Shown piece by piece: positions 14,200-52,877 of a stretch of 64,000 bases of DNA. The notes beneath the pieces are model-generated. The model did no database searches, was not told the DNA's origin, and worked only from the letters and a program-made list of their open reading frames with translations. The position numbers were made by a program, and so were the translations under genes. Source of the stretch: an uncultured Elusimicrobia bacterium. GTDB taxonomy: Bacteria; Elusimicrobiota; Elusimicrobia; Elusimicrobiales; Elusimicrobiaceae. The stretch is taken from assembly GCA_945913025.1 (NCBI GenBank), contig CAMECJ010000001.1, forward strand, positions 248,001 through 312,000, written 5' to 3'. How positions within the stretch are numbered: position 1 is the first letter of the stretch; each line of letters opens with the position of its first letter.

Positions 14200-14859
14200 T
14201 TATAACGCGTATACCGCTATTCCGCCGTCCGACCAATTTTTACGGGGAGCGGAAAATATCTTTTGGCAATAATCTCCGGCAGTTTTGGTAAAGACCAGCC
14301 CACTTCCCACCCGCTCGGCACAATATAACGTGTTTGGCGGAAGAGAACCGTGTTGCACCCAATACACCCAGCCGGCTCCTTTATAGGCCCCCGTCAAACG
14401 CCCCATATAAATTCCTGTCATGCTTCCGTCGGAATATAATTGCAGACTCCAATCCCCGTTGGAACGCGTATCCTTTACCGCACTATTAGCCGAACGCCAG
14501 TATTCTTTCCCGGTCCAGGGAAGCTCTACATCCAGCTGGTCAAACTGAGTGGCAAACGAGCCGTTTGCCATATAATATGTTTGCTGGGCCTGCCCCAAGG
14601 ATTTGAGCAAAGTAAGCGGCTGCGCCGCGCGGGATTTTTCCACCGCTTTTTGGTACTGCGGCAGCGCAACGGCAGATAAAATGCCGATGATTAACACAAC
14701 AACTAACAGTTCTATTAAGGTAAAACCACGCGTTGTCATTCCAGGGCACCGTGAGGCCCGCACGGTGAACCGGAAATCCAGATTTAAATAAGGTTTACAA
14801 CTTTTATTAAACGGCCTGGATCCCGGCTCCACGGCCGGGATGACGACTTTTTGACACAT
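14200..14859 (-). CDS. Type IV pilin-like protein with a REP-like element in its leader
   Basis: The pilin core starts at GFTLIELLVVVLIIGIL and runs into SAVALPQYQKAVEKSRAAQ. Two starts are possible. ATG at 14859 has GGGGGA nine bases upstream and gives a 43-residue leader. ATG at 14739 gives the usual short MTTR leader but has no ribosome site and lies inside the terminal ATGAC of a repeat element. The extra 120 bases are exactly in frame and are almost wholly the repeat at 14735-14844. Because the leader is removed by prepilin peptidase, a long one may be tolerated. The C-terminal half has paired Cys (YCAERVGS...YCQKIF). A poly-T-spacer promoter lies at 15023-15048. Confidence 0.85.
   Translation of the reverse strand: MCQKVVIPAVEPGSRPFNKSCKPYLNLDFRFTVRASRCPGMTTRGFTLIELLVVVLIIGILSAVALPQYQKAVEKSRAAQPLTLLKSLGQAQQTYYMANGSFATQFDQLDVELPWTGKEYWRSANSAVKDTRSNGDWSLQLYSDGSMTGIYMGRLTGAYKGAGWVYWVQHGSLPPNTLYCAERVGSGLVFTKTAGDYCQKIFSAPRKNWSDGGIAVYAL
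14735..14844. repeat. REP-like composite palindromic element inside pilin leader
   Basis: About 110 bp with outward GTCAT...ATGAC ends. Two hairpins lie in opposite orientation, each ending at an inward ATCCAG/CTGGAT motif: GGGCACCGTG/CACGGTG-type at one side and CCCGGC/GCCGGG at the other. It has the same architecture as the elements at 14906-14982, 27407-27482 and 28156-28236. Confidence 0.75.
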
Positions 14860-15022: not shown

Positions 15023-15048
15023 ATGGTATCAAAAAAAAAACGGGTCAA
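15023..15048 (-). promoter_or_regulatory. Poly-T-spacer promoter of pilin (14-nt spacer)
   Basis: Minus strand: TTGACC (15048-15043), spacer CG + T10 + GA (14 nt), TACCAT (15028-15023). It has the shortest spacer among five homologous pilin promoters. At 14 nt it should be weak, perhaps an OFF state. Confidence 0.6.
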
Positions 15049-27681: not shown

Positions 27682-28254
27682 CTAATCCGCATAATAGCAG
27701 GATCCGCTGTACGTTCCGCAGACAATACAAATGGAATTAGACGTAGTATATTTTGTAAATCCTAATTGTTTGCAATCGGCGCCTTCACAAGAACGCGCGC
27801 CGGTTATGCGGTGTAACCCTAACTTAAACTGGGCGTTTCCGCCTTTATATTCCGCATATACAGGATTATTAATGTGAGAACAATCTACATCTCCCGTATA
27901 GGAAAAATTTTTGGAATCTAATATTTCAACAGATAAAGAATCTTTTATATACATCAGCGACCGGTTTCCCGCATTTGGGTTCTCCAAACAGTATGCACTA
28001 ATTGCCATATTGAGGTTTTTTAAAGTTGTCCACGCCTCGGCAGTACGGCTTTTGAGTACGGCCTTTTGGTACTGCGGCAGCGCCACCGACGACAAAATAC
28101 CAATAATAAGTACCACCACCAACAATTCAATTAGAGTAAAACCTTTAATCGCATTGTCATACTGAACTTGTTTCAGTATCCAAGCGGAAGATTTTATTTG
28201 ATTAACAACTGGATTCTGAAATAAATTCAGAATGACGAGAAACAAACCTTTCAT
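27682..28254 (-). CDS. Type IV pilin-like protein with an in-frame REP insertion in its leader
   Basis: 190 residues from ATG 28254, chosen because AGGAGA sits seven bases upstream exactly as in the sister pilins. Their genes begin MKGFTLIELL. Here MKG is followed by 35 extra residues that translate a REP-like element, and then KGFTLIELLVVVLIIGIL resumes. Eight-base direct repeats flank the insertion, and deleting 105 bases would restore the normal start. The leader is therefore about 38 residues, but the predicted prepilin-peptidase site and mature pilin are intact. The C-terminus (RSCEGADCKQLGFTK...CIVCGT...CYYAD) closely parallels the pilin at 45489-45956, so the two are recent paralogs. 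Confidence 0.88.
   Translation of the reverse strand: MKGLFLVILNLFQNPVVNQIKSSAWILKQVQYDNAIKGFTLIELLVVVLIIGILSSVALPQYQKAVLKSRTAEAWTTLKNLNMAISAYCLENPNAGNRSLMYIKDSLSVEILDSKNFSYTGDVDCSHINNPVYAEYKGGNAQFKLGLHRITGARSCEGADCKQLGFTKYTTSNSICIVCGTYSGSCYYAD
28156..28236. repeat. REP-like element inserted in pilin leader, flanked by direct repeats
   Basis: 81-bp core with GTCAT...ATGAC ends and hairpins ATACTGAA/TTCAGTAT and ATTCTGAA/TTCAGAAT. The direct repeats AAACCTTT at 28139-28146 and 28244-28251 bound a 105-bp insertion. Confidence 0.8.
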
Positions 28255-28370
28255 TTTATTTTCTCCTATTAAAAAGTTATCCTGCCGGATTTCTGCCCGA
28301 AATCCGCCTTTTTTAAACACACAACACATCATCGGGCGCTCCCAGGCAAAAAATCTTTTGGGATGACTTT

Positions 28371-28398
28371 ATGTTATCAAAAAAAAAAAACAAAACAA
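28371..28398 (-). promoter_or_regulatory. Poly-T-spacer promoter of pilin (16-nt spacer)
   Basis: Minus strand: TTGTTT (28398-28393), spacer TG + T12 + GA, TAACAT (28376-28371). Its -35 is weaker than in the sister promoters. Confidence 0.55.
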
Positions 28399-42073: not shown

Positions 42074-42568
42074 CTACGGTAGCACATAAGAGTACCAGTC
42101 GCCGCTGACAGTTTCGTTCGTTCCTCCAAGAGAACGGCAAACCCGCCGTGCAAGTTCTGTACTGGCACCACATTCACGGACAGACGGTTTATCAGAATGT
42201 TCCAACCAACGAATATACCGCAATTCCCCACCCAACCAAATTGAATTGTTAACCCCAAGGATATTTTTATTTTGGCCTTGAAATAAATCTATAGAATAAC
42301 GAGGGCAGCTCGCCACCCCACCAAATTCATATTCATTTATAAGGCAATGGGCCGGCAATTCAAAATCCAACTCGTTAAAGAAAAAGGAATAACTTCCATT
42401 CGCCAAAAAATACAACTCTTGCGCCTTTGCCATAGCCTCCACCGAAGAAATCAACTGAATATAACGGCTTTTCTCCACCGCCACTTGGTATTGCGGCAGC
42501 GCAACGGCGGATAAAATGCCAATAATTAAAACGACGACTAACAATTCGATGAGGGTAAAACCCTTCAT
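42074..42568 (-). CDS. Type IV pilin-like protein
   Basis: 164 residues: MKGFTLIELLVVVLIIGILSAVALPQYQVAVEKSRYIQLISSVEAMAKAQELYFLANGSYSFFFNELDFELP. The minimal three-residue leader, mature Phe1 and Glu5 match the classic form. The body resembles the pilins at 14200 and 52251 (YFLANGSY..., the same stretch between helix and D-region). Cys: HCLINEY, VASCPRYS, ECGAS, RVCRSLGG. AGGAGAATGTGAT precedes the ATG. The poly-T-spacer promoter lies about 400 bases upstream, separated by several REP fragments. Confidence 0.92.
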   Translation of the reverse strand: MKGFTLIELLVVVLIIGILSAVALPQYQVAVEKSRYIQLISSVEAMAKAQELYFLANGSYSFFFNELDFELPAHCLINEYEFGGVASCPRYSIDLFQGQNKNILGVNNSIWLGGELRYIRWLEHSDKPSVRECGASTELARRVCRSLGGTNETVSGDWYSYVLP

Positions 42569-42959: not shown

Positions 42960-42986
42960 ATCGTATCAAAAAAAAAAACGGGTCAA
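42960..42986 (-). promoter_or_regulatory. Poly-T-spacer promoter of pilin (15-nt spacer)
   Basis: Minus strand: TTGACC (42986-42981), spacer CG + T11 + GA, TACGAT (42965-42960). Confidence 0.6.
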
Positions 42987-45488: not shown

Positions 45489-45956
45489 TTAATCGGCGTA
45501 GTAACATTTAGGATTTGTGCCACACAAACAAATATCCGTATCAGAACTAAATTTTGTAAACCCCAATTTGTCACACGAATCGCCACTGCAAGAGCGGCGG
45601 CCAGTTTTAGGGTGAATACCTACCTGAAAAGAATATCCTCCCCCTCCTTCCCACCGTGCTTGCATATCGTGCAATTTGGAACTATTGCTGCACTGAATCG
45701 CCCCATAATAGGTAAAGTTTTTGGAATTTTTTACCTCAATAGACAAAGGGCCGTCCAACTTAAAATCCTCAACTGCACTTGGATTTTCCAAACAATATGC
45801 ATTGATGGCCGTATTGATATTTTTCAAGTTTACCCACGCTTCAGCCGTGCGGCTTTTCAGCACCGCTTTTTGGTATTGCGGCAACGCCACCGATGATAAA
45901 ATACCGATAATTAAGACAACAACCAACAATTCAATTAATGTGAACCCTTTTTGCAT
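45489..45956 (-). CDS. Type IV pilin-like protein
   Basis: 155 residues: MQKGFTLIELLVVVLIIGILSSVALPQYQKAVLKSRTAEAWVNLKNINTAINAYCLENPSA. It is nearly identical in the first 60 residues and similar throughout to the pilin at 27682-28254 (same RSC...GDSCDKLGFTK...CYYAD tail), but with the normal short leader. AGGAGG precedes the ATG. It has a poly-T-spacer promoter about 80 bases upstream and a terminator downstream. Confidence 0.93.
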   Translation of the reverse strand: MQKGFTLIELLVVVLIIGILSSVALPQYQKAVLKSRTAEAWVNLKNINTAINAYCLENPSAVEDFKLDGPLSIEVKNSKNFTYYGAIQCSNSSKLHDMQARWEGGGGYSFQVGIHPKTGRRSCSGDSCDKLGFTKFSSDTDICLCGTNPKCYYAD

Positions 45957-46034: not shown

Positions 46035-46062
46035 ACTGTATCAAAAAAAAAAAACGAGTCAA
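46035..46062 (-). promoter_or_regulatory. Poly-T-spacer promoter of pilin (16-nt spacer)
   Basis: Minus strand: TTGACT (46062-46057), spacer CG + T12 + GA, TACAGT (46040-46035). Confidence 0.6.
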
Positions 46063-52250: not shown

Positions 52251-52751
52251 TTAAACTTGAAAACCTGCATAGAGAGCATTGTGCGTTGGAGATTTGCCCG
52301 AAATACTTTGGCAAACACGCCAAGACAAGCTGTCTTCGTTCTTCTCTGCCCAACAAATAAAATAATCACGGGCAAAATATCTCTCCAAAGTCGGCGCCCC
52401 AGGGCTCTTGTCATTACAATAAGCAGAAAAAGAGTACGGATTATCGTCAAATGACTGCAAATAGCAATAAAAATCCCCATATTCAAGACGACGGCCTGTG
52501 ATAAGCCTTCCCCCGCTTGGCATACCAATATCTAAGTCTTCAAATTGCGTCGTATAAGTACCGTTAGCCATATAATACACGTTTTCCGCCTCCGAAATGC
52601 TGCGCAGCAGTGAAATCAACCGCATTGTGCGCGTTTTTTGCACCGCTTTTTGGTATTGCGGGAGTGCAACACTCGCCAAAATGCCAATGATAAGCACAAC
52701 CACCAACAATTCAATTAGCGTAAAACCTTTCATTTTATTTTCCTCTATCAA
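52251..52751 (-). CDS. Type IV pilin-like protein
   Basis: 166 residues: MKGFTLIELLVVVLIIGILASVALPQYQKAVQKTRTMRLISLLRSISEAENVYYMANGTYTTQFEDLDIGMP. Classic short leader and Glu5. The middle (YYMANGTYTTQFEDLDI) resembles the pilin at 14200 (YYMANGSFATQFDQLDV). Cys: FYCYLQ, AYCNDK, FICWAEK, RVCQSI. GAGG precedes the ATG. The mRNA leader contains a REP-type hairpin (ATCCTGGG/CCCAGGAT) just before the ribosome site, and a poly-T-spacer promoter about 100 bases upstream. Confidence 0.92.
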   Translation of the reverse strand: MIEENKMKGFTLIELLVVVLIIGILASVALPQYQKAVQKTRTMRLISLLRSISEAENVYYMANGTYTTQFEDLDIGMPSGGRLITGRRLEYGDFYCYLQSFDDNPYSFSAYCNDKSPGAPTLERYFARDYFICWAEKNEDSLSWRVCQSISGKSPTHNALYAGFQV

Positions 52752-52849: not shown

Positions 52850-52877
52850 ATCGTATCAAAAAAAAAAAACGGGTCAA
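52850..52877 (-). promoter_or_regulatory. Poly-T-spacer promoter of pilin (16-nt spacer)
   Basis: Minus strand: TTGACC (52877-52872), spacer CG + T12 + GA, TACGAT (52855-52850). Confidence 0.6.

What the first reader, a model, noticed from the sequence alone, without database searches (positions are those of the whole stretch)
15023..15048. Homopolymer tracts as promoter spacers of five pilin genes: candidate phase variation
Five pilin promoters (15023-15048, 28371-28398, 42960-42986, 46035-46062, 52850-52877) share the plan TTGACC/TTGACT/TTGTTT - two bases - T(n) - GA - TAnnnT. The tract is 10, 12, 11, 12 and 12, giving spacers of 14, 16, 15, 16 and 16. RNA polymerase is very sensitive to spacer length near 17, and homopolymers slip during replication. 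Such spacers switch surface genes in Neisseria (porA, opc). The 14-nt copy may be OFF. The three other pilin genes have ordinary 17-nt spacers.
Basis: partly seen in the sequence, partly recalled or inferred. Interest (0 to 1): 0.82.

Follow-up and report, generated by a model that had tools for sequence, protein, structure and literature searches.

The report
Homopolymer-spaced promoters of pilin genes
In a gut bacterium of the Elusimicrobiaceae, every run of ten or more A/T bases in the assembly sits inside a near-identical promoter, almost always in front of one of dozens of surface pilin genes; these runs may work as independent volume knobs for surface variation, but actual switching has not been shown.

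Summary
The five tracts belong to a genome-wide promoter family, TTGACcCG-T(10-13)-GATAnnnT. All 77 T-runs of 10 or more in this 1.76-Mb Elusimicrobiaceae genome are followed by GATAnnnT. Of these, 73 lie 31-519 bp upstream of a pilin (115 pilins in all); the other four precede a truncated pilin and three predicted secreted proteins. The tract is almost never interrupted, although its flanks vary. The family occurs in 59 of 90 Elusimicrobiaceae genomes (1,460 copies, up to 103 per genome). Length is strongly peaked: T12 71%, T11 13%, T10 6%, T13-14 10%. The constrained quantity is the spacer, 16 nt: species with one extra 5' base have T11, and some relatives use A11 instead of T, again giving 16. 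Near-identical leaders carry T10, T11, T12 or T13, so lengths do change. I favour a weak sigma70/extended -10 promoter whose spacer is tuned to 16 and detuned by slippage (phase or rheostat variation, about 50%). The main rival is a fixed A-tract spacer with shared regulation. MutS is present and no strain or read data were available, so switching is unproven. New variant of a known kind.

The parts
15023..15048 (-). Promoter 1: -35 TTGACC (15048-15043), CG, T10 tract (15040-15031), GA, -10 TACCAT (15028-15023); spacer 14
14200..14859 (-). Pilin driven by promoter 1; N_methyl at residues 44-66; long in-frame leader made of a REP-like repeat
28371..28398 (-). Promoter 2: TTGTTT-TG-T12-GA-TAACAT; tract 28379-28390; spacer 16
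27682..28332 (-). Pilin driven by promoter 2 (N_methyl 62-85, repeat-derived leader)
42960..42986 (-). Promoter 3: TTGACC-CG-T11-GA-TACGAT; tract 42968-42978; spacer 15; about 395 nt from the pilin N-methyl region
42074..42568 (-). Pilin driven by promoter 3 (N_methyl 2-24)
46035..46062 (-). Promoter 4: TTGACT-CG-T12-GA-TACAGT; tract 46043-46054; spacer 16
45489..45956 (-). Pilin driven by promoter 4 (N_methyl 2-25)
52850..52877 (-). Promoter 5: TTGACC-CG-T12-GA-TACGAT; tract 52858-52869; spacer 16
52251..52751 (-). Pilin driven by promoter 5 (N_methyl 6-30); the same chromosomal site beside dxs carries tract promoters in other species

Best explanation
The five tracts are members of a large, dedicated promoter family for surface pilins. 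Each is a weak sigma70-type promoter: a good -35 (TTGAC), a non-consensus -10 preceded by TG (extended -10), and a spacer that is almost entirely one A/T homopolymer. RNA polymerase works best when the spacer is 16 nt, so selection keeps most copies at T12 (or at T11/A11 when flanking bases add one). Replication slippage moves single promoters to 15, 14 or 17 nt and so lowers or changes their output. Each of some 70 pilin genes thus drifts independently between expression states, and cells in a population would show different mixtures of pilins. Shown here: the promoter architecture, its near-exclusive use for surface genes, tract purity, conservation of the 16-nt spacer, and length differences between near-identical copies. 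Inferred: the effect of length on expression, the slippage rate, and that the variation is adaptive.
For: 77 of 77 T-runs of 10 or more in the genome are this element; 73 precede pilins, 3 precede predicted secreted proteins and 1 a truncated pilin. Tract purity: one interrupted tract besides the 73 pure ones in G000, and about 2 of roughly 105 in G055, while flanking positions vary freely. Homopolymer used in either strand orientation: TTGACAAATC-A11-CGATAAT in G011 (74 copies), G004 (42), G062 (29), G015 (13), upstream of pilins where inspected. Spacer 16 kept: T12+CG, T11+TCG, A11+AATC. Length differences: about 300-nt near-identical leaders with T10 vs T12, L086/L087 T12 vs T13, identical 62-nt leaders T10 vs T11 in G049; length does not track leader relatedness. 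0 of 73 have TATAAT, so output should be sensitive to spacing. Precedents: M. hyorhinis vlp A-tract (PMC10502178); S. pyogenes R28 T-tract, 9T vs 10T (PMC7098570).
Against: Length is sharply peaked (T12 in 71% of 1,460 copies, 92% in G055), so most copies are in one state. MutS is present, which limits slippage. An extended -10 can reduce dependence on -35 spacing (general knowledge). No strain, read or transcript data. Cassette exchange between loci could also move tract lengths around without slippage. These are draft assemblies, so single-base length errors in homopolymers cannot be excluded for individual copies.
Confidence: 0.5

Rival explanations
1. Fixed structural spacer with shared regulation. 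The pure A/T tract is needed as rigid, overtwisted A-tract DNA (or as a binding site) that lets this weak promoter work, or be recognised, as one regulon. Lengths of 10, 11 and 13 are tolerated drift, not an adaptive switch. A poly(dA-dT) helix has about 10 bp per turn, so a 16-nt spacer would give roughly the twist of an ordinary 17-nt one.
For: Tight length peak and 16-nt rule. MutS present. In related species the -10 is one arm of an 11-13 bp dyad GATAAATTTTG-N8-CAAAATTTATC centred on the start codon, with compensatory changes (positions 6, 11, 12, 13), which looks like a repressor operator. CG-T-GAT core shared in both orientations. Near-constant use for one gene class.
Against: The dyad is missing from the window genome (best 9 of 13 pairs, mostly 2-5). 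38% of copies in this genome are off the modal length. Length varies even among near-identical leaders. Mixed A/T spacers would also be rigid, yet nearly all tracts are pure.
Confidence: 0.35
2. The element is conserved mainly because it is the 5' homology edge of exchanged pilin cassettes (gene-conversion anchor). Repeated copying between loci homogenises the promoter, and its role in expression variation is incidental.
For: At positional equivalents in relatives the flanking DNA is often recognisable (up to 94-95% upstream at one site, 90-99% downstream at another) but the pilin differs in 5 of 6 cases, and in the sixth the leader differs. Leaders up to 100% identical sit on genes only 54-80% identical, with unrelated upstream sequence.
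Against: The motif is only about 28 bp; homogenisation alone does not explain a 16-nt spacer kept across three architectures, an inverted A-type, or restriction to the position before pilins. -35 variants differ between copies with the same leader.
Confidence: 0.1
3. Chance or artefact: ordinary AT-rich promoters, or assembly noise.
For: A Markov model of the window gives about 6 runs of 10 or more.
Against: 77 of 77 tracts in the same motif; reversed-pattern control 0; conserved in 59 of 90 genomes, including unrelated assemblies.
Confidence: 0.02

Closest known systems
Mycoplasma hyorhinis vlp genes
   Same: [quoted passage not shown] indels switch transcription ON/OFF (Citti and Wise 1995, as reviewed in PMC10502178)
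   Different: Handful of lipoprotein genes in one cluster (own knowledge) against 77 dispersed promoters, almost all pilins; here lengths are tightly peaked and switching is not shown; T on the sense strand in most species, A in a few
Bordetella pertussis fim2/fim3 and Neisseria porA/opc promoters
   Same: Homopolymer in the promoter of fimbrial or outer-membrane genes; length sets expression (own knowledge)
   Different: C/G tracts, single genes; fim tract lies upstream of the -10 in an activator-dependent promoter; here a shared A/T tract over a whole gene family
Helicobacter pylori sabA T-tract
   Same: T homopolymer sets adhesin transcription by a rheostat-like mechanism (PMC4081817)
   Different: Tract lies adjacent to and upstream of the -35, lengths range T5-T22; here it is the spacer, mainly T10-T13
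Streptococcus pyogenes Spy1336/R28 T-tract
   Same: T homopolymer of 8-13 with two main lengths; one-base indel changes transcript levels (PMC7098570)
   Different: Thought to act on regulator-site spacing; single locus
60 pilE-like genes of unknown function in Elusimicrobium minutum
   Same: Same family of bacteria, same expansion of type IV pilin-like genes (own knowledge of Herlemann et al. 2009; paper not held)

Membership tests
sigma70-type promoter with extended -10 | -35 TTGACA-like and -10 TAnnnT at 15-18 nt | tested here: met
   TTG in 72 of 73; spacers 14:5, 15:19, 16:44, 17:2, 18:2
sigma70-type promoter with extended -10 | TGn directly before the -10 | tested here: met
   TGA from the last T of the tract plus GA; GATA in 73 of 73, partly by the search pattern; all 77 tracts followed by GATAnnnT without selection
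sigma70-type promoter with extended -10 | Transcription start about 7 nt after the -10 | not testable with these tools
   A conserved A (66 of 73) lies 7 nt after the -10, but no transcript data
Phase-variable simple-repeat promoter (contingency locus) | Uninterrupted simple repeat between -35 and -10 of a surface gene | tested here: met
Phase-variable simple-repeat promoter (contingency locus) | Tract length differs between otherwise near-identical copies | tested here: met
   T10 vs T12, T12 vs T13; T10 vs T11
Phase-variable simple-repeat promoter (contingency locus) | Tract length polymorphic between cells or strains of one species | not testable with these tools
   One genome per species; no reads
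Phase-variable simple-repeat promoter (contingency locus) | Expression changes with tract length | not testable with these tools
   Spacer held at 16 across architectures suggests it
Type IV pilin / pseudopilin family | Class III signal peptide and N_methyl domain (PF07963) | tested here: met
   115 hits in the genome, 111 above cut-off; all five window genes
Pilin antigenic variation by cassette exchange (pilE/pilS-like) | Exchange of pilin sequence at a conserved site | tested here: inconclusive
   Positional equivalents hold different pilins in 5 of 6 cases, but between species, and there is no silent-cassette evidence

The most novel reading that the evidence does not exclude
A genome-wide combinatorial surface system: 70-100 pilin promoters, each an independent homopolymer-spacer switch tuned to 16 nt, combined with exchange of pilin cassettes at fixed chromosomal sites, so that each cell displays its own pilin mixture. 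This would explain the long-unexplained pilE-like gene expansion of Elusimicrobiota.
Probability: 0.35. Interest if true: 0.9.

Novelty: new variant of a known kind. Interest (0 to 1): 0.74.

Why it matters
Homopolymer promoter switches are known for single genes or small clusters. Here nearly the whole A/T-homopolymer content of a genome, and 1,460 copies across a bacterial family, are devoted to one promoter design in front of a huge pilin family whose function is unknown. It gives a direct handle on that open question: tract lengths can be read from existing metagenomes, and the 16-nt rule can be tested with simple reporters. The A-tract and T-tract versions with the same spacer are a natural experiment on how spacer DNA and length set promoter strength.

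Tried and rejected
DNA-uptake sequence: rejected, copies are 1:1 with pilin or secreted-protein starts, not scattered. Alternative sigma or sigma54 promoter: no -24/-12 motif; TTGAC/TAnnnT fits sigma70. Loss of mismatch repair as the cause of long tracts: MutS is present in all 21 genomes searched. Comparing tract lengths at positional equivalents in relatives as a slippage test: abandoned, because the pilin cassette itself is usually different there. Paralogue length correlation: no memory above chance, but few close pairs. The G049/G050 sample was chosen to include all listed non-T12 copies of G049, so its length mixture is not a frequency estimate. Rfam: only a tRNA in the window. The consensus promoter scanner found only promoters 4 and 5 of the three in the part scanned; promoter 3 has a 15-nt spacer, outside its 16-18 rule. 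Herlemann 2009 is not held.

Full report
Observation. They precede five ORFs with the N_methyl pilin domain. The window holds three more pilins with ordinary 17-nt spacers and no tract (sequence). The count of long A/T runs in the window is not itself surprising under a Markov model (about 6 expected); the position is.

Scale. The window lies in a 1.76-Mb assembly. Its dxs protein finds Elusimicrobia/Elusimicrobiaceae MAGs from gut and rumen, including Candidatus Avelusimicrobium, as nearest named relatives. The genome encodes 115 proteins with an N_methyl segment. Searching the pattern gave 56 copies at once, with none for the reversed control. The 201 T10 windows of the genome are completely accounted for by 77 tracts, and a search for tracts of T10-14 followed by GATAnnnT returns 77: every A/T homopolymer of 10 or more is this element. 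Of the 77, 73 lie 31-519 bp upstream of a pilin on the same strand. The other four precede a truncated pilin (MYQKGFTL followed by unrelated sequence), two paralogous proteins with signal peptides, and a 455-residue protein with a signal peptide. 42 pilins lack the tract.

Anatomy. Aligned on the tract, the conserved block starts about 13 nt before it, with no information further upstream. It reads (R)GGnCTTGACCCG - T(n) - GATAnnnT - RGGG. The last T of the tract plus GA makes TGA before TAnnnT, an extended -10. None of 73 has TATAAT; the commonest are TAACAT and TACGAT. A conserved A lies 7 nt after the -10, where a transcription start would be expected. Lengths in this genome are T12 45, T11 22, T10 5, T13 1 among the pilin copies, giving spacers 16 (44), 15 (19), 14 (5), 17 (2), 18 (2).

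Purity. Only one interrupted tract was found upstream of a pilin in this genome. In G055, with 103 T10-14 copies, two clear interruptions were seen, while the base two before the tract is C or T about equally. Sites a few bases away are random, so an unconstrained spacer would long have decayed. The homopolymer is selected or actively maintained.

The 16-nt rule. Family-wide (90 genomes) 59 carry the T element, 1,460 copies in all: T10 90, T11 187, T12 1,043, T13-14 140. In G062 and G011, whose T-type promoters have T11, most inspected copies carry one extra base before the tract (TTGACA-TCG-T11-GA), again 16 nt. Several species use the other strand: TTGACA-AATC-A11-C-GATAAT, 74 copies in G011, 42 in G004, 29 in G062, 13 in G015, upstream of pilins in the loci inspected; again 16 nt. 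Three architectures converge on one spacer length. This is good evidence that these are promoters and that spacer length is under selection.

Do lengths change? Yes, on the time scale of recent copies. The window's T10 copy has a promoter-leader segment about 95% identical over some 300 nt to a copy with T12 elsewhere in the genome. Two species share a 95% identical leader beside dxs with T12 and T13. In G049, copies with an identical 62-nt leader have T10 and T11. Among paralogues length does not follow leader relatedness. I first compared positional equivalents in the closest relatives (G063, 96% in one housekeeping gene), but flanking genes are conserved while the pilin itself differs in 5 of 6 cases, so these are not clean orthologues. 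They show instead that pilin cassettes are replaced at fixed sites, with the promoter at the 5' edge.

How it most likely works. A weak promoter with an extended -10 and a homopolymer spacer will be sensitive to single-base slippage. Selection keeps most copies near 16 nt, and slippage supplies off-length copies: 38% in this genome, 8% in G055. This fits a slow phase-variation or rheostat system acting independently on each pilin gene. It is not proven: MutS is present, the length peak is far narrower than in H. pylori sabA (T5-T22; PMC4081817), and no reads or strains were available. I put switching as the selected function at about one half. The chief rival is a fixed A-tract spacer with common regulation. 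In several relatives the -10 forms one arm of an 11-13 bp dyad around the start codon with compensatory changes, which looks like an operator; the dyad is absent from this genome.

Comparison. The nearest known case is the vlp family of Mycoplasma hyorhinis, with an A tract in the promoter of each member (PMC10502178). Single-locus cases are S. pyogenes R28 (8-13 T, 9T and 10T commonest, one-base effect on transcripts; PMC7098570), H. pylori sabA, and, from my own knowledge, Bordetella fim and Neisseria porA/opc. The present system differs in number, dispersal, restriction to pilins and related secreted proteins, use of both tract orientations, and the strict 16-nt rule. The 60 pilE-like genes of unknown function reported for Elusimicrobium minutum (own knowledge; paper not held) are the likely counterpart.

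Limits. Draft assemblies, one genome per species, no transcript data; lengths of single copies may carry assembly error. The A-type and T-type promoters were linked to pilins in inspected loci only, not in every genome.

Noticed in passing
window 14200-14859 (-) and 27682-28332 (-); leaders of many pilins: Palindromic GTCATTCC...GGAATGAC repeats (REP/MITE-like) lie in pilin leaders; in these two genes such repeats are read in frame and form a long N-terminal extension before the FTLIEL cleavage region.
   Followed up: partly
L089, L092, L114, L115, L119, L238-L277 (G049, G050 and other species): GATAAATTTTG-N8-CAAAATTTATC dyad overlapping the -10 and centred on the ATG, with compensatory changes; spacing suggests leaderless mRNAs and a shared repressor operator.
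   Followed up: partly
G011/G004/G062 A-type promoters versus T-type: The A-type core (ATC-A11-CG) is the reverse complement of the T-type core (CG-T11-GAT), as if the spacer core were used in either orientation.
   Followed up: no
G000 versus G063/G041 at the FBA/PBP1C, L018, L036, L040, L052, L077 sites: Chromosomal pilin sites are shared between species but their pilin or leader cassette is usually different.
   Followed up: partly
G012, G047, G049, G069, G070, G073: T10 is commoner than T11 (for example 4:0, 3:0, 5:4), unexpected if lengths change only one base at a time.
   Followed up: no
all pilins of G000: Tract-promoter pilins lie on the G-rich strand in 96% of cases, other pilins in 55%, suggesting placement on the leading strand; the skew includes the genes themselves.
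   Followed up: no
G000 C8:94023, C2:32521, C1:27289 (L082, L167, L166): Three predicted secreted, non-pilin proteins use the same promoter.
   Followed up: partly
L064 (G000 C6:15881): Truncated pilin with an intact T12 promoter: reading frame departs right after MYQKGFTL.
   Followed up: no
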